In this document: piece by piece, positions 3,713-50,957 of the stretch
Position numbering within the stretch: the first letter of the stretch is position 1
How the letters are laid out: every line of letters starts with the position of its first letter
Assembly: GCA_037783545.1 (NCBI GenBank)
Contig: JBBELK010000067.1
Coordinates: 744,001-808,000, forward strand
Direction: 5' to 3'
Length of the DNA stretch: 64,000 nt
Source: Henricia sp. BOLD:AAB3569
Taxonomy: Eukaryota; Echinodermata; Asteroidea; Spinulosida; Echinasteridae
The notes under the pieces: model-generated
The model's input: only the letters and a program-made list of their open reading frames with translations
What the model was told of the DNA's origin: nothing
Database searches by the model: none
Program-made: the position numbers and the translations under genes

Positions 3713-3811
3713 GGTACACTGTGTGATAATCGGGCAGTGTAACCACTGCATGTTTTTCTCGAAAGCGGCAGACAAAATTGGTTGACCAAATAAAAACGGC
3801 CGACTTACAAA

Positions 3812-3855
3812 ACAAACCCTAATTGATATTCATTCTCCCCGACGCAAGCTAAAAA
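3812..3855 (+). repeat. solo copy of the terminal repeat of the tRNA-Thr-like SINE family
   Basis: The words AAACCCTAATT..CATTCATTCTCCCCGACGCAAGCT match the direct terminal repeats that bound the tRNA-like cores at 18.5 kb and 50.6 kb. Here no tRNA-like core follows, so this is an isolated terminal unit. Confidence 0.55.
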
Positions 3856-8305: not shown

Positions 8306-10250
8306 ATGGACAAATCTGCGAGGAAGAAATCTACCAAGGACATTGCGGTTCCCGCGACTGGACGCTCCACCGGACCGCCGTCTTTGTCGGAGGCTTTAGG
8401 TCAGGTGGCACCCCCCTCCCGTGAGCCTACCTCCGGCCGTGAATTTGCTGGGGTCACCTCCCCCGCTCTGCTCCCGGACACCCGAGCCCCTCCGTCGTGA
8501 CCACCGAGGAAAACCTTTCCTTCAAGGGCACGCCCCCCGCGCCATTGCCCTCTCGGCTCCCTGGATATGCTTACCGCTCCATGCACGCCGAGGATCTTCA
8601 CCAGGCCGCAGAACCAGTTCCAGTTTCGAGCTCTGTTCTTAGCGCCTCAGGTACCCGTGGGGTGCCTGGCCCGTCAGAGTTAGCCTATGGGACGTCTTTT
8701 TCTTTTGGCCCCCCGCCTTACTCCGCTCCACGGGCCAAACCTACGCCCACCGGTCCGCCCATTCTGGGTCTACCTGTGGGATCGCTGCAAAGGCCATTGA
8801 CCGCCCCGGGACCCTCGAGCCTGCCTTCCACTTCATAATGTTTTCCATGCTCCGGTGTTCCAGCTCCTCCATCCGCTCCCGATTCCTCTTCCGAAGATCG
8901 GTCCAGCCTCCGGACGAAGAAAGGTAAATCCCGCCGCAAGAGACACCATACATCCTCAGGATCGGAATCTCATTCCCATCGCCGAGCCAAACGCCGTGAA
9001 CGCTCGAACACTTTTTCTCCAGCTACCTTGATCCAAGCGTTTCAGGCCTTTTCAGCGATGTCAGCGGCAGGATTCCCCTCGCGGCAACTCGCCCCCTTCC
9101 CGGGCCAGTTCGCCCCTCAGGCCGGTTTGGCAGCCTCGGTCGGTGGACACGCTCCGAGCATCAGTCAGATCGCCCCCAGCGTCGCCCCATCTACTCGCGC
9201 TGACCAGCCTCCTCCGGCCCAGGCCGCGGGTCGCGCTCCTCCGTCTCCACCGGCCATTTCTGTTCGTCCGTCGTCATTTTTCTCCGGCTCAGACGCCGAA
9301 CTTGAGGATCGTCGCCTTGCGTTTCCGGACCCCCGCCACACATGCACGGTCCTCTCTGGTGGGTTCCTCCCCCCATTTACTCTCAGACCAAGATTCCTAT
9401 GATGAGAGTGATAACGCCTTGGATACACTGAATCTATCCCCTCTAGAAACCCGTCTAGTTCAGAGGGACATGATCCGGGTTCTGAACCTTCCAGATACAA
9501 CTGTACCGGAGCCGGACCCTGCTCCCCATCAGTCCTTCAAGCAGCGTACGGCTTTGGGTGAGCCGGCCGGCCGCACCGCTCTCTTCCCAGTGCTTCCGCT
9601 AGACCAGTTTTGCATCAAGCACATACAAAACGTCGCTTCTCGCAAGAAATGGATCGCCTTCGATAAACGGGTAAACAGTTATTTTCGTTTCCCCCAGAAT
9701 GAATTTGAGGATTTTCTGGCGGTTCCTCTCGTCCCGGACTCCGTCAAAGACAAACTGGCCGCAGATGGTTCGGCTTCGGGAACGTCCCGCAATCTTTTGG
9801 CCGACTCCGCCAGAAACGACCTGGAGATCGACCACTCTTAAGAAGGCCGACTGGGCCTCCAGGCTGGGCATCCGAGTCACGTCGTTCATGCTTCTCCTGT
9901 CCGAATATCTTGTCCGCGGCTGCGATGAAGATACATCTATTCCCGCCGGTAAATTCCAGGAAGCTATGGAAGCTCAGGCGAAACGCATCGAAGCTACAGA
10001 CAAGATTAATCTTCGAAAGTCAGCGAAGCCCGCCCCAGCCCAGGCGAAATCCTATAAACCTAAAGCTCGCCTGTCGTCGACCGGCCATCCGGGAACTTCC
10101 CGGGGCCGCTCCTTTCGCGGCCGTCCCTTTACCTCGTCATCCCGAGCGACGACACGCACTTCAAGCCAGCGCCAAGACCGGTCCTCTAACCTGGGTGGCC
10201 GACATTACAAGCCTCCGGCCTCCCGGTTCACCCGGGGCTGGCGCCAATGA
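8306..10250 (+). pseudogene. DIRS gag-like region, multiply frameshifted
   Basis: An ATG at 8306 begins MDKSARKKSTK. Frame then passes between all three phases: 8306..8500, 8497..8838 with a stop at 8836, continuing open to about 9400, then another phase to 9841 and a third to 10250. The product is Pro/Ser/Ala-rich at the N-terminus. Next comes a Lys/Arg/His/Ser stretch (KKGKSRRKRHH, near 8920), then a more globular part with FDKRVNSYFRFPQNEFEDFL (near 9660). It ends in an Arg/Ser/Gly-rich basic tail (GTSRGRSFRGRPF). This order is usual for DIRS gag. At least three frameshifts and one stop break it. Assignment rests on position and composition, not on a named domain. Confidence 0.6.
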
Positions 10251-10259
10251 CCCCGTCCA

Positions 10260-12149
10260 GCTCCAGCGGCCTCCTATAACCGGACCCGTGGGCGGCCGCC
10301 TTCAAGCCTTCATAGGGTCCTGGACCCGGACCGTCTCCGACCGATGGGTGCTCCAGACAATTCGACACGGTTACTCTCTGGAATTCACGAGCACCCCTCC
10401 GTGGAGGAGTGGCGGCCTATTCTCAACCTGAAAGCCCTGAACAGGTTTATCCGCCCAAAGCGTTTTCGCATGGACTCCCTTCGGACGATTCTCGACTCGA
10501 TTCCGGTCCCTGCATGGGCTACTTCGATCGACCTGAAGGACGCGTATCTCCATGTACCCATTCTCCAAAGCCATCGCAGATTCCTGCGGTTCCACTACAA
10601 GGGGACTGCTTACGAATTCACCGCACTTCCCTTCGGCCTATCAACTTTCCCTCGCGTGTTCACGAGGATCGTGAAATCAGTGGCTGCGTCCCTTCACAGA
10701 AACAACATCACGATATTCATGTACTTGGACGACTGGCTGATTGTAGGCCGCTCAAAGGCCGAAGCCAGTCGGGCATTGCAGGAGACGTTGTCCATGACCA
10801 CTCAACTTGGCTTCCTGGTCAACGAAAGGAAATCGCGGCTAATTCCCTCTCAGTCGCCGACGTTTCTGGGAGCTGTCCTCGACCTCAAGAGGAGCATTGC
10901 CTTTCCTTCGGCTCCTCGCATTTTCAATCTCCAGCAGTGCGTCCGCCTGTTTCTTGAGAGAGACTCGGCCCCTGCAGTAGCGTGGCTGAAACTGCTGTGG
11001 TTGATGGCAAGTTTGGTGGACCTGGTTCCGTTCTGCCGTCTGTACATGCGTCCACTCCAGCTCCATCTCCTTGCCCACTTCCGTCCGAAGATTTACTCCG
11101 CCCACCGCTCGGTCTCTATCCCTCCTTCTCTTCAGACAATCCTCCAGTGGTGGACGGAGCCTCGCCATATAGCCTGCGGGAAGCCCTTTCCCAGCCTTCG
11201 GCCGTCGAAGACTATTTTCACGGACGCTTCCCGCCTAGGCTGGGGGCCACACTTTACCCGCGCCAGGCGGCGGGGAAGTGGGACCCAAGTCAACAGTCTC
11301 CATATCAATGTTCTCGAGATGTTGGCAGTCTTCAACGCTCTACGACACTTCAGCTGTCTCATTCGGGACCGTGCTGTCCTTGTCAAGTCGGACAACTCCA
11401 CAGTCGTGGCCTACATCAACCGCGAGGGGGGCACCCGATCTCCTCGGCTCTGCCTCCTCGCGTGGGACATTTTTCACTGGTGCCTGGACCTCAACATCAC
11501 ACTGACGGCTTCCCATGTACCAGGCGCGGACAACTCGATAGCCGATGCCCTCTCCAGGGGAAGGATCCGGCCAACAGAGTGGACTCTGCAACCCAGTGTG
11601 GTCGAACAGATCTTCTTGACAGTCGACCGTCCACACATAGATCTGTTTGCGTCAGGAGCCAACGACCATCTCCCAGTCTTTTGCTCCAGGCATCCCGACC
11701 CTCGAGCGTGGCAAGTCGATGCCCTGTCGATTCCGTGGTCAGGAATGTTCGCCTACGCGTTCCCCCCGATATCTTTAATTCCTCGGGTTCTCTCGAAGAT
11801 AGAACAGGAACCCTGCAAGGTTCTCCTCGTGGGCCCGTTCTGGCCTCGGCAAGCCTGGTTCCCGCGTCTGGTCAACCTGTTGATCCACAACCCGATAGTT
11901 CTCCCTTATCGACCGGACATCCTGTTCCAACCGGGCTCGAACATTCTCCACCCAGCCCCCAAGGATCTTCACCTGACGTGCTGGGTATTGTCAAACAGTC
12001 CTTCCGCGCAGCAGGTCTTTCGTCAGAAGCTGCCTCGTTCGCGGCACACAGTCGTCGATCGTCCACCAGGAAGGTCTACAACAGCCGACTTCGACATTTC
12101 TATAAATGGTGCCGACGGAAAGCTGTTAATCCGACCCATTCTTCTCTGA
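10260..12149 (+). pseudogene. DIRS reverse transcriptase / RNase H ORF
   Basis: The main open frame runs from 10344 to 12149. Reverse transcriptase signatures appear in order: WRPILNLKALN, SIDLKDAYLHVPI, LPFGLSTFPRVFT and the catalytic YLDD at 10722..10733 (FMYLDDWLIVG). RNase H follows, with the catalytic FTDAS at about 11217..11231, LEMLAVFNAL, KSDNSTVVAYIN and GADNSIADALSRG. After it comes the conserved DIRS stretch with HIDLFASGAND and VDALSIPWSG. Some authors describe that stretch as methyltransferase-like, but I see no clear catalytic motif. The N-terminal part (GGRLQAFIGSW..WVLQTIRHGY, 10290..10370) lies in another frame. It joins directly to WRPILNL, so several tens of residues normally found between these blocks appear deleted around 10390..10405. 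The copy cannot make full-length protein. Confidence 0.85.
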
Positions 12150-13065
12150 CAGACATTGGCGATTTTCTGGTCTACTTATTTAATTCTGGCCTCAAGGTAG
12201 CCACCATCAAGAACTACCGAACAGCCATTGCCGCCATCCACGCGGGATTCCCCGACGGCTCTTCTATCTCTAATAATTACGCCTTGGGTCATATCCTCCG
12301 CGGGATGTTCATTGAGAAGCCTTCCACTCGTGAGTTACTCCCTTCCTGGGACCTTCCATTTGTTCTTGAGAGCCTTTCGCGTCCCCCGTTTGAACCCTTG
12401 GGACAGACGTCCTTGCTCAACCTCTCGATTAAGTTCGCCTTTCTCCTAGCGGTCGCGACCTCTCGACGCCGAAGCGAACTTCAGGCCTTGTCCATCGAAC
12501 CCGGCCATATTCGCTGGGAGCCCCATGGAGTTCGTCTGTTTCCCCGGACCTCCTTTCTAACGAAGAACCAATCGGACTCCTTCTCTCCTCCTGACATCTT
12601 CGTCCCAGACATTAAATCTTACTCGTCTGTTCTAGAAGATAGAAAGTGGTGCCCGGTCCGAGCCCTCAAATGGTACCTCAATAAGACCGAGCTAATCAGA
12701 GGTGCTACGACTCCTCTCTTCATCACGTCGACTCCTCTCATCGTCCAGCTTCACGAGAAACTATCGCTCGCTGGATTGTTACAGCCATTCGGTCCACCGA
12801 ACTAAACTGGCCGACGGCTTCAGAGCAGAACTCCCGAGTCAGAGCGCATGACGTCAGAGCCGTTTCGACCTCGTGGGCCTTCTTCAAGGGAGTTCCGCTT
12901 CCTGACATTATGCAGGCTGCGTGCTGGAAGTCATCCAACACTTTCACATCCTGCTACCTCCGGGACGTCCTCCAATCCGAGGGCCGCACCGGCAGATCAG
13001 CGTTGCTGTCAGCAAGGACCTCAGCTTCGACGGCTGCTCCACCCTGCATTCAGCAACCCCTCTAG
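11955..13065 (+). pseudogene. DIRS tyrosine recombinase, frameshifted
   Basis: The recombinase overlaps the end of the RT/RNase H frame. The N-terminal SAM-like half (STRKVYNSRLRHFYKWC, TIKNYRTAIAAIHAGF) and the catalytic Arg box (ATSRRRSELQAL, about 12456..12491) are in one frame, open to 12805. The HxxR box (AHDVRA, His codon at 12847) and the nucleophile Tyr (CYLRD, codon 12955..12957) are in the next frame, which ends at TAG 13063. One base was gained or lost near 12735..12741. The first 300 or so codons of the long frame opening at 10982 are only a shadow of RT. The recombinase family cuts and rejoins DNA through a 3'-phosphotyrosine and would insert the circular cDNA. Confidence 0.8.
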
Positions 13066-18268: not shown

Positions 18269-18372
18269 AGTTCCATAACTGTTAATTAGGGTTTGCCCTT
18301 ACCCGACGTATATTAATTAGCACTGTATACTCAGTGCTTTCCCGAGACCCCATGAAAAACTTCGATCATAGC

Positions 18373-18445
18373 GTGCTCAGGCGGGATTCGAACCCACGAC
18401 CTCCTGCAAACAAGGTAGACGTCTTAACCACTCGACCACCGAGCT
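18373..18445 (-). repeat. tRNA-Thr(TGT)-like core of SINE (minus copy)
   Basis: This is the reverse-complement counterpart of 18624..18696, with anticodon loop CTTGTTT and B box GGGTTCGAATCC. One arm position differs (CCTGAGC at the acceptor 3' strand). It is part of a SINE and is not considered a working tRNA gene. Confidence 0.6.
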
Positions 18446-18623
18446 AGCCGGTGTTAAATGGCCGGTTCGAATTAGTTAGCAACGGGGATCACAATTAATC
18501 AGTAATTAAATAATAGGGCAAACCCTAATTAACATTCATTCTCCCCGACGCAAGGTAAATCAATTACTGATTAATTGCGATCCCCGTTGCTAACTGATTC
18601 TAACCGGCCATTCAACACCGGCT

Positions 18624-18696
18624 AGCTCGGTGGTCGAGTGGTTAAGACGTCTGTCTTGTTTGCAGGAGGTCGTGGGTTCGAATCCCGCCCGAGCAC
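18624..18696 (+). repeat. tRNA-Thr(TGT)-like cloverleaf, core of SINE (plus copy)
   Basis: It folds well. The acceptor is AGCTCGG with CCGAGCA (six pairs), and the D stem is GTC/GAC around GAGTGGTTAA. The anticodon stem TCTGT/GCAGG carries loop CTTGTTT, so the anticodon is TGT. The T arm is GTGGG-TTCGAAT-CCCGC. The A and B boxes are intact. The repeated, dimeric and terminal-repeat context makes a SINE head more likely than a host tRNA gene. A tRNA finder would probably report it. Confidence 0.6.
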
Positions 18697-18816
18697 GCTA
18701 TGAAGTTTTTCATAGTGTCTCGGAAAAGCACTGAGTATACAGTGCTAATTAATATACGTCGGGTAAGGGCAAACCCTAATTAACATTCTCCCCGACGCAA
18801 GCTAAATCAATTACTG

Positions 18817-19175
18817 AGTTCCATAACTGTTTCACTGCATGGTGGAGAGTTGAAGAAACAATCCGCCAAATGTCATCTTCTTTTTGAGCTTCTGTCATGT
18901 ACTGGAACCGTGGATTTCCAAGTCTAGAAAATAAAATGAAAACATTAACTTTAATAATATACATGTACAAGCTAGCTTCCAACATTCATGAGTGATGACA
19001 TGCCAAAACAATTCTTGTGTTGGCCTAAATTTGTTTAGAAAACATTATTTTAGCAGCGAGAAAAATTAATTTTTCCCCCTTGAAAAGACTGGATTTTTGT
19101 ATCATGCTCCATAGACTTAATGCATGGAGTCTCAACTGGCCAGCCTGTATGATATTTTTTTCCGTTGGATGTACT
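18817..19175 (-). repeat. inverted duplicate (arm 2) with exon-like core
   Basis: Read on the minus strand, 19160..18975 equals 15850..16022 at about 88% by eye, and 18930..18830 equals 16555..16690. The core follows TTTTATTTTCTAG and reads LGNPRFQYMTEAQKEDDIWR in one frame. The plus-strand copy is too diverged in frame to support a conserved protein. The family is unrecognised. Confidence 0.55.
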
Positions 19176-21020: not shown

Positions 21021-21165
21021 GCCGTGATACGAAACCACCAGTTGGCTTCATAGCGCAATTAGTAGGGCGTCTGCACGTTGAGCAGAAGGTCCGCGGTTCG
21101 AATCCCGGTGGACACAAGTTGCTTTTCACTGCATCCAGATTGCCAAAACTCATGGAAATCTGTCC
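21021..21165 (+). repeat. tRNA-derived SINE
   Basis: A-box-like TAGCGCAATTAGTAGG and B-box GGTTCGAATCC lie at normal spacing. The putative anticodon loop ACGTTGA lacks the universal U33. The body AAGTTGCTTTTCACTGCATCC is shared with 4822..4962. Confidence 0.65.
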
Positions 21166-50238: not shown

Positions 50239-50371
50239 AGGCAGAAGCTCGTCAATGCGCGCGTGAGGCCAAATTCGTGCCACGAAATACGCAGCTCCGT
50301 AGCAAAGGCACGGAGCTGCGTATTTCGTTGCACGAATTTGGCCTCACGCGTGCATTAACAAGCCTGTGCCT
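50239..50371. mobile_element. family B hairpin MITE (nested 2)
   Basis: TTAA is at 50235..50238 and 50372..50375. The arms show a small variation (GTGAGGCC replacing part of the usual CGCGC run) that is mirrored on both sides. Confidence 0.8.
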
Positions 50372-50394
50372 TTAAAGCAATTTTTTGTGCTTAA

Positions 50395-50526
50395 AGACGA
50401 GGCTCGTCAGCATTGCGCGCGCGCCAAATTAGTCCCACGATATACGCAGCTCCATGCCTTTGCTACATGGAGCTGTGTATTTCGTGGCACGAATTTGGCG
50501 TGCGCATTGCTGACGAGACTGTGCCT
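50395..50526. mobile_element. family B hairpin MITE (nested 3)
   Basis: TTAA is at 50391..50394 and 50527..50530. It has full arms with ACGAGGCTCGTCAGC and GCTGACGAGACTGTGCCT. Confidence 0.8.
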
Positions 50527-50583
50527 TTAAACACCTCTATGAAATTGGCCCCTGTTTTAGCAATACATAACTAAAGAATAATG

Positions 50584-50882
50584 TCAGAAGTTGATTTAGA
50601 CTTGCGTCGGGGAAATTGAATGTTAAGTAAGGGTGATTTTGCCCTTACCCGATGTAATTATTAACACTGTATACTCAGTGCTTTCCCGAGACACTATGAA
50701 CAACTTTATAGCGTGCTCGGGTGGGACTCGAACCCACGACCTCCTGCATAAAAGGCAGACGTCTTAACCACTCGACCACCGAGCTAGCAGGTGTTGAATG
50801 GCCGGTTCGAATCATTTCGCAACGGGGATTGCAATTAGTCAGAAGTTGATTTAGACTTGCGTCGGGGAAATTGAATGTTAAG
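50584..50882 (-). mobile_element. tRNA-like SINE with identical 44-bp direct terminal repeats
   Basis: Direct repeats 50584..50627 and 50839..50882 (starting TCAGAAGTTGATTTAGAC, containing CTTGCGTCGGGG) are identical. The unit is flanked by the 12-bp target duplication TAAAGAATAATG (50572..50583, 50883..50894). Between them on the minus strand lies a tRNA-like core plus TATACTCAGTGCTTTCCCG words shared with 18.3-18.7 kb. Confidence 0.75.
50713..50785 (-). repeat. tRNA-like core of the SINE, anticodon loop CTTTTAT
   Basis: This has the same acceptor, D and T arms as the core at 18624..18696 (B box GGGTTCGAGTCC), but its loop gives TTT in the anticodon position. It is SINE-borne and not considered a working tRNA gene. 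Confidence 0.55.
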
Positions 50883-50957
50883 TAAAGAATAATGATGATA
50901 AACCGCCTTGTAGAAATGTCAGCCACATAGATGCATGCAGTAATACTTCAGAAGACC

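What the first reader, a model, noticed from the sequence alone, without database searches (positions are those of the whole stretch)
50572..50894. tRNA-like SINE bounded by identical 44-bp direct terminal repeats
The unit 50584..50882 has perfect 44-bp direct repeats at both ends and a 12-bp target duplication outside them, with a tRNA-like core between. Ordinary SINEs end in a tail and have no terminal repeats. The same terminal unit also flanks the tRNA core at 18.53..18.82 kb and occurs alone at 3812..3855, as a solo LTR would. This looks like a miniature, LTR-like or TRIM-like element built round a tRNA-Thr-type gene, or a SINE amplified through head-to-tail or circular intermediates. I know no standard family with this layout.
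Basis: partly seen in the sequence, partly recalled or inferred. Interest (0 to 1): 0.72.

Follow-up and report, generated by a model that had tools for sequence, protein, structure and literature searches.

The report
tRNA-headed mobile element with Penelope-type ends
A tiny, gene-less jumping element built round a tRNA-like promoter appears to be copied in the tandem, two-ended way known from Penelope retroelements and ribozyme circles, and its apparent terminal repeats are just a tandem copy cut off partway.

Summary
In detail: 50584-50882 has identical 44-bp direct repeats at its ends, a 12-bp target duplication and a tRNA-like core. The LTR/TRIM reading is not supported. The element is a 255-bp tandem unit and the window copy is 1.17 units; the "terminal repeats" are the overlap. 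Copies in the same genome include arrays of up to 4.9 units, 5'-truncated copies and head-to-head inverted copies. Copies end mostly at two sites, A (~u4) and B (~u43), about 39 nt apart. Of 18 inverted insertions with target duplications, all are head-to-head and 17 have one arm at A and the other at B, none A/A or B/B. Two RT start sites separated by an optional 30-40 nt "tail", head-to-head arms with the tail on one, and tandem copies are reported signs of Penelope-like elements. Best reading: a tRNA-headed, non-autonomous, SINE-like element inserted by Penelope-type machinery, resembling animal retrozymes but with no hammerhead found. GIY-YIG relics of the Penelope sort exist in the genome, but no partner sharing its sequence was found in the 14 loci tested. 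The 18.3-kb "pair" is one inverted insertion with a 15-bp duplication.

The parts
50572..50583 (.). left target-site duplication TAAAGAATAATG
   Evidence: read directly; repeat D4; automatic TSD call
50584..50882 (-). whole insertion, 1.17 units of a 255-bp tandem unit; sense (tRNA) strand is minus, u1 = 50882
50839..50882 (-). first (5') copy of the 44-bp repeat, u1-u44
50584..50627 (-). second (3') copy of the 44-bp repeat; read as the optional 'tail'; outer end is site B
   Evidence: the tail reading is inferred
50713..50785 (-). tRNA-like core with intact A and B boxes (Pol III promoter, inferred)
   Evidence: ARAGORN; Rfam 60.9 bits; boxes read by eye against recalled consensus
50628..50647 (-). 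A/C-rich hairpin (u236-u255) just 5' of site A
   Evidence: fold of the consensus unit; region folds incl. this copy
50623..50624 (-). position of site A (about u4/u5), the other end site used by sister copies; not the 3' end of this copy
   Evidence: ends
50883..50894 (.). right target-site duplication TAAAGAATAATG
18269..18283 (.). left target duplication of the 18.3-kb insertion (AGTTCCATAACTGTT, 15 bp)
18284..18502 (-). left (inverted) arm of the 18.3-kb insertion, diverged copy; outer end at site A by eye; holds tRNA 18373-18445
18515..18816 (+). right arm of the 18.3-kb insertion; outer end at site B; holds tRNA 18624-18696
18817..18831 (.). right target duplication of the 18.3-kb insertion (its first base is shared with the element's last)
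3808..3855 (+). short diverged fragment of the tail region, origin uncertain

Best explanation
This is a non-autonomous, SINE-like retroelement with a tRNA-type internal promoter, inserted by machinery of the Penelope type. Proposed steps, with their basis. (1) RNA carrying one or more 255-nt units is made: multimer transcripts of arrays, and at least sometimes a single-unit template copied round and round (circle inferred). (2) A GIY-YIG reverse transcriptase opens AT-rich target DNA with a staggered cut of about 12 bp (8-17 bp duplications shown; the enzyme inferred). (3) Each DNA end primes reverse transcription internally on the RNA, one at site A next to an A/C-rich hairpin, the other at site B about 39 nt further 3' (end sites and the one-A-one-B rule shown; the enzymology inferred from the Penelope of Anolis). 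(4) If both ends are extended and joined, often at microhomology, a head-to-head inverted insertion results; if only one is, a direct copy with a variable 5' end results (inferred from the shapes of copies). (5) A direct copy that runs a little beyond one unit shows terminal direct repeats, as the window copy does (shown). The tRNA suggests Pol III transcription, but a T-run just after it means that a Pol III transcript not reading through would stop before both start sites, so a longer transcript is needed (inferred).
For: Tandem arrays of the 255-bp unit, up to 4.87 units. Of 99 clusters of 60 bp or more, 10 flank duplicates and 45 without a duplication of 8 bp or more were dropped; of the 44 kept, 18 are inverted: 18 of 18 head-to-head, 17 of 18 one arm at A and one at B, 0 A/A, 0 B/B, 1 unassigned. 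Of the 26 direct ones, 24 have the 3' end at A (10) or B (14), with windows A u244-u14 and B u35-u51, together 17% of the unit. TSD calling: 42 of 83 real against 5 of 408 mismatched flank pairs. Both arms of inverted copies contain the same start region, which twin priming on one single-unit RNA would not give. Three arrays (L030, L043, L044) carry 19 variants shared by all their units and none private, as copying of one circular or single-unit template predicts. Unit RNA is more structured than shuffles (z -5.9 sense, -3.5 antisense). Penelope pattern of two adjacent internal RT starts, tail between them, both strands cut and extended, A/C-rich stem-loop: PMC11167929 (main text read). Tail optionally on one of the inverted pLTRs, TSDs of 8-10 bp: PMC3846280 (passages). 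Tandem 5'-truncated copies giving pLTRs: PMC8969392 (passages). Penelope-like GIY-YIG copies are in this genome: 151 matches with 150 of 631 candidates scored.
Against: No autonomous Penelope with the same start region was found: 3' flanks of 11 GIY-YIG copies plus three 8-kb loci gave only chance-level similarity (best E 0.14; 7 of 200 shuffled units hit 8 of those flanks at E <= 0.2). That the GIY-YIG copies are Penelope rests on recall; no reverse transcriptase was read beside them. 45 of 89 non-duplicate clusters had no called TSD; among these some end outside A and B (for example L010 at u80 and L019 at u64, one search list). Most arrays have more private than shared variants (63 shared, 203 private over 28 arrays), so single circles cannot explain all arrays. 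The Anolis study saw no difference in start site between strands, whereas here each assigned inverted insertion uses one of each. Ends were set by alignment to a consensus and by the TSD, so single positions are good to a few bases only. A pair of likely duplicates (L027, L036) remained in the 44.
Confidence: 0.7

Rival explanations
1. An animal non-LTR retrozyme relative whose hammerhead has been lost or replaced by the tRNA: small self-paired RNA circles drive spread, and the tRNA ends (RNase P and Z) or another ribozyme make the unit-length RNA. It overlaps with the best explanation and differs mainly in how the template is made, so the two odds are not exclusive.
For: Unit size 255 bp, tandem dimers to multimers, TSDs longer than 4 bp and strong self-pairing match published animal retrozymes (170-400 nt). 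GC 47% is below the 50% reported. Arrays with only shared variants: L030, L043, L044.
Against: No hammerhead core CTGANGA..GAAA in the consensus or in the element copies of 54 loci, both strands (the 40 tail-pattern loci were not scanned). No ribozyme family at E <= 5 in a five-unit array. Most arrays have private variants.
Confidence: 0.4
2. A TRIM or tRNA-bearing miniature LTR element (Helenus type): the 44-bp repeats are true LTRs.
For: Perfect direct terminal repeats and a TSD in the window copy; tRNA inside the element; 4 of 34 core-query loci have the repeat at both ends.
Against: TSD 8-17 bp against 4-5 bp reported for Helenus; tRNA lies between, not in, the repeats; left ends vary; 14 of 34 core-query loci are inverted and all 18 inverted copies with a TSD are head-to-head.
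Confidence: 0.03
3. An ordinary LINE-mobilised tRNA SINE with occasional tandem insertion and twin-primed inversion.
For: tRNA head with A and B boxes; recurrent 3' end sites; 5' truncation; TSDs of LINE-like length; microhomology at several inversion junctions.
Against: Two alternative 3' ends about 39 nt apart; arms of inverted copies overlap in sequence and end one at A and one at B in 17 of 18; arrays of several units; a T-run of 4 or more just after the tRNA in 50 of 55 units would stop a Pol III SINE transcript before the 3' sites. LINE 3' ends of this genome were not searched.
Confidence: 0.15
4. A tRNA-gene-derived satellite spread by DNA-level recombination or extrachromosomal circles.
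For: Tandem arrays, three of them with uniform units.
Against: Dispersed copies with TSDs in 42 of 83 against 5 of 408 controls, recurrent ends, head-to-head inversions.
Confidence: 0.05

Closest known systems
Penelope-like elements (Penelope/Poseidon clade, tandem pLTR structure and 'tail')
   Same: Tandem and partial-tandem copies, head-to-head inverted arms, optional tail at one of two adjacent 3' sites, TSDs of similar length, AT-rich targets (71% A+T in TSDs; window 58%), A/C-rich hairpin beside a start site
   Different: No long reading frame, 255-bp unit, tRNA core instead of an RT-EN frame, no hammerhead found; no shared sequence with a Penelope found here
Animal non-LTR retrozymes (Cervera and de la Pena 2020, PMC7229834; review PMC7761336)
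   Same: Small tandem unit, strong self-pairing, multimers, TSDs larger than 4 bp, proposed Penelope help
   Different: Lacks a detectable hammerhead, which defines them, and carries a tRNA-type promoter, whereas retrozymes are said not to seem to have promoters
tRNA-derived SINEs
   Same: Gene-less, tRNA-like Pol III boxes, dispersed copies with TSDs, 5' truncation
   Different: tRNA is in the middle of the copied unit, two end sites, tandem units, head-to-head arms (comparison from general knowledge)
Helenus TRIMs (PMC10886601, abstract) and biv-TRIM (PMC6934838, passages)
   Same: Short direct repeats around a core, tRNA-like sequence, tandem forms (biv-TRIM)
   Different: Longer TSDs than Helenus, no constant LTR ends, inverted copies; whether biv-TRIM, which has no clear primer site, is of the present kind is an untested thought

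Membership tests
Penelope-like element | single frame with RT and GIY-YIG endonuclease | tested here: not met
   unit is 255 bp; no ORF of 150 aa or more listed in the element; so it is not itself a Penelope
Penelope-type insertion (non-autonomous) | two adjacent 3' ends with optional 30-40 nt tail | tested here: met
   24 of 26 direct copies with a TSD end at A or B
Penelope-type insertion (non-autonomous) | head-to-head inverted arms, tail on one arm | tested here: met
   18 of 18 head-to-head; 17 of 18 one A, one B
Penelope-type insertion (non-autonomous) | tandem or partial-tandem copies, 5' truncation | tested here: met
Penelope-type insertion (non-autonomous) | sequence shared with an autonomous Penelope of the same genome | tested here: inconclusive
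   no significant match in 3' flanks of 11 GIY-YIG matches (of 151 found) plus L071-L073
Animal non-LTR retrozyme | type I hammerhead ribozyme | tested here: not met
   0 cores in consensus and in 54 loci; no Rfam ribozyme at E <= 5 in L044
Animal non-LTR retrozyme | accumulates as small circular RNA | not testable with these tools
   no RNA data
tRNA SINE | tRNA-like Pol III promoter | tested here: met
   Rfam tRNA 60.9 bits; boxes read by eye; promoter activity not tested
tRNA SINE | 3' end shared with a LINE or ending in a simple or A tail | tested here: inconclusive
   copies end at two sites; no A tail seen in the ends printed; LINE 3' ends not searched
TRIM / Helenus | constant LTR ends, TSD 4-5 bp | tested here: not met
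   TSDs 8-17 bp in the 44 rows kept, variable left ends; the caller only accepts 8 bp or more, so shorter TSDs in the other 45 are not excluded
TRIM / Helenus | primer-binding site and polypurine tract | not tested
   not searched

The most novel reading that the evidence does not exclude
A class of Penelope-mobilised SINEs exists: a tRNA promoter replaces the hammerhead of retrozymes, a circular or multimeric tRNA-bearing RNA is the template, and every two-ended insertion uses one copy of each start site (A on one DNA strand, B on the other). That would mean two reverse transcriptase units act asymmetrically, one per strand, on the same RNA domain.
Probability: 0.35. Interest if true: 0.8.

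Novelty: new variant of a known kind. Interest (0 to 1): 0.6.

Why it matters
How Penelope elements insert is not settled (PMC11167929 says further steps are yet to be validated), and no tRNA-headed SINE using them was seen in the listings of seven library searches (an open-licence collection, so not proof of absence). A 255-bp substrate with many young copies gives a readable record of start-site choice: one A and one B per inverted insertion. It could be used to test a two-strand, two-start model directly, and it would link SINEs with retrozyme-type RNA circles.

Tried and rejected
TRIM/LTR reading: not supported on TSD length, variable left ends and inverted copies. Solo LTR at 3.8 kb: a short, diverged fragment, no clear TSD by eye. 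Hammerhead remnant at u41-u68 (CTGA, stem, GAAA): rejected, catalytic core not intact and GAAA not kept in the 18-kb copy (by eye; scans). Partner Penelope by shared sequence: the 29-nt match of L127 to u241-u14 is at chance level. An apparent TSD in L057 and L099 is the element's own repeat: L057 was filtered out, L099 is still among the 44 rows as a direct copy with its 3' end outside A and B. Left ends at site A: 6 of 15 direct copies in the repeat-core-repeat sample, a sample that favours them; in the full core-query set 3 of 9 direct copies with a TSD have the left end at A and 1 of 9 at B, in the tail sample 1 of 7 (L099 left out). A real excess at A is thus possible but not shown. An earlier count from the 18 newly fetched core loci alone was biased, because core hits already held had been left out; one search replaces it. 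Pol III as sole source of template: doubtful, since a run of 4 or more T lies about 9 nt after the tRNA in 50 of 55 units.

Copy numbers are lower bounds (2355 and 2058 first-look candidates, 40 scored each). Of the 100 places listed of 128 tail-pattern matches, 40 stretches were read, in list order, skipping loci already held and one other. No empty-site comparison was made.

Full report
Check of the observation. The insertion at 50584-50882 is as described: identical direct repeats of 44 bp (48 nt in register), a 12-bp target duplication, and a minus-strand tRNA-like core at 50713-50785 that scores 60.9 bits against the Rfam tRNA family. The A box and B box read intact by eye. The pattern CCCCGACGCAAGNNNAAATCAAYTWCTGA from the repeat occurs 128 times in the 740.7-Mb genome that holds the window; its reversed control occurs 0 times.

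What it is. Searching the own genome with the insertion gave 100 matches with 40 of 2355 candidates scored, among them clear tandem arrays. Read in tRNA sense, the repeated thing is a 255-bp unit (u1 to u255, u1 set at the left end of the window copy). The window copy is u1-255 followed by u1-44, that is 1.17 units. The "terminal repeats" are therefore whatever part of a tandem unit is present twice. Copies from about 0.3 to 4.9 units were read, besides shorter scraps.

Samples. Three sets of stretches were read: 38 from the repeat-core-repeat query, 18 new ones from a core-only query (19 further core hits were already held), and 40 round tail-pattern matches, plus the two window loci. In one search these gave 99 clusters of at least 60 bp; 10 were duplicates of others by flank, 45 had no target duplication of 8 bp or more, and 44 were kept. 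One of the 44 (L099) is an artefact, since its duplication is the element's own repeat, and one likely duplicate pair, L027 and L036, was not caught by the filter. The target duplications are 8-17 bp (median 12; the caller does not accept shorter ones), 71% A+T (window 58%). The calling rule fires in 42 of 83 real flank pairs and in 5 of 408 mismatched pairs.

Ends. Of the 26 direct copies kept, 24 have the 3' end at site A (10; u252-u5) or site B (14; u42-u44); the two others are L099 and L115. The 5' end varies. For the whole core-query set, 37 loci less 3 duplicates, 14 of 34 are inverted, 1 ambiguous, 19 direct, and 4 of 34 have the repeat or nearly all of it at both ends. Of the 18 inverted copies with a duplication, 18 are head-to-head and 17 have one outer end at A (u249-u14) and the other at B (u35-u44); the eighteenth (L091) has a broken left arm that could not be assigned. 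With free and equal choice, 17 of 17 mixed pairs has a chance of about 8 in a million; this treats copies as independent. Some clusters without a called duplication end elsewhere (list). The second window locus, about 18284-18816, fits the same rule: it is one head-to-head insertion of a diverged copy with a 15-bp duplication, left end at A, right end at B (ends read by eye), and was not in the 18.

How it most likely works. Both arms of inverted copies contain the same start region, so they are not two halves of one single-unit RNA as in LINE twin priming; each DNA end appears to have primed its own cDNA at an internal site. That is the scheme reported for a Penelope of Anolis: cleavage and extension of both strands, internal starts at two adjacent sites, the stretch between them being the known "tail", and an A/C-rich stem-loop at the start (PMC11167929, main text read). 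Passages of PMC3846280 describe inverted pLTRs, an optional 31-bp tail on one of the inverted pLTRs and 8-10 bp duplications in rotifer Penelopes. In the present element a hairpin TAAGG-(A/C-rich loop)-CCTTA lies directly 5' of site A and is enclosed by a CGTCGGG/CCCGACG stem in the consensus fold and in the commonest sequence of the region (part of whose output was cut). The 18-kb copy keeps a hairpin there with other bases (AGGG-CAAA-CCCT), a modest sign that the shape is kept. No covariation test was run.

Template. The 255-nt RNA is unusually structured (circular fold -90.5 kcal/mol against a shuffle mean of -60.0, z -5.9 in tRNA sense; z -3.5 antisense; z -3.2 with the tRNA cut out; 150 shuffles each). 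In three arrays all variants are shared by all units (L030: 5, L043: 6, L044: 8; none private), as copying a single-unit circle would give, or later spread within the array. Over all 28 arrays the sums are 63 shared and 203 private, so this is not general. No hammerhead core was found in the consensus or in 54 loci, and no ribozyme family matched the five-unit array L044 at E up to 5. A run of 4 or more T about 9 nt after the tRNA occurs in 50 of 55 units; Pol III transcripts would thus be expected to end before sites A and B, so the source of long template RNA is open.

Partner. GIY-YIG domains of a Penelope-like kind are common here: 4 by profile, then 151 matches by protein (150 of 631 candidates scored). 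3' flanks of 11 of them, and three 8-kb loci, share no significant sequence with the unit. The assignment of these domains to Penelope is from recall, and no reverse transcriptase was read beside them. The autonomous helper is therefore not identified, and this is the main gap.

Known kinds. It is not a Penelope by its own coding, and not a retrozyme by definition since no hammerhead was found, but it looks to work like both: tandem 170-400 nt units, strong self-pairing and duplications longer than 4 bp are what animal retrozymes show (PMC7229834, abstract and passages; PMC7761336 sections 8 and 9), and the authors name Penelopes as likely helpers. Helenus, the tRNA-bearing TRIM (PMC10886601, abstract), differs in duplication length and in placing the tRNA in the LTR. 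Searches of the open-licence library for a Penelope-borne tRNA SINE listed none by title or abstract; most hits were seen as listings only.

Verdict. Observation confirmed; LTR reading not supported; head-to-tail or circular reading supported in part. A new variant of a known kind: a tRNA-headed SINE-like element with Penelope-type insertion marks. Interest 0.6.

Noticed in passing
window 9143-12805: DIRS-like retroelement relics (name by recall): a frame with reverse transcriptase and RNase H-like matches (Pfam RVT_1, RVT_3) and an overlapping frame with a below-cut-off phage-integrase N-terminal match.
   Followed up: partly
window 50300-50520: Foldback repeat with arms of 40-43 nt, repeated in direct and inverted order at about 155-nt spacing, just left of the insertion.
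   Followed up: no
L104 1019-1091, L105, L106: A different SINE-like sequence fused to u12-u45 of this element and ending at site B; three near-identical loci on one contig. Looks like a template switch during an insertion started at site B.
   Followed up: partly
L068 1483-2964 and L074 3702-5180 (same place, G000 C23): Open 493-aa frame with an N-terminal part without Pfam match, joined to a GIY-YIG domain about 51% identical to the mobile one; a second match in a 511-aa frame about 7.5 kb away. Possible domesticated endonuclease.
   Followed up: no
G000 contigs C615, C291: GIY-YIG fragments with the same stop recur at many places per contig, often 17-23 kb apart, as if a large segment were tandemly amplified.
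   Followed up: no
L085 490-1126: Inverted copy with a perfect palindromic centre in the tail region.
   Followed up: no
window 21044-21116: Another tRNA-like match (33.7 bits); not among the matches to this family.
   Followed up: no
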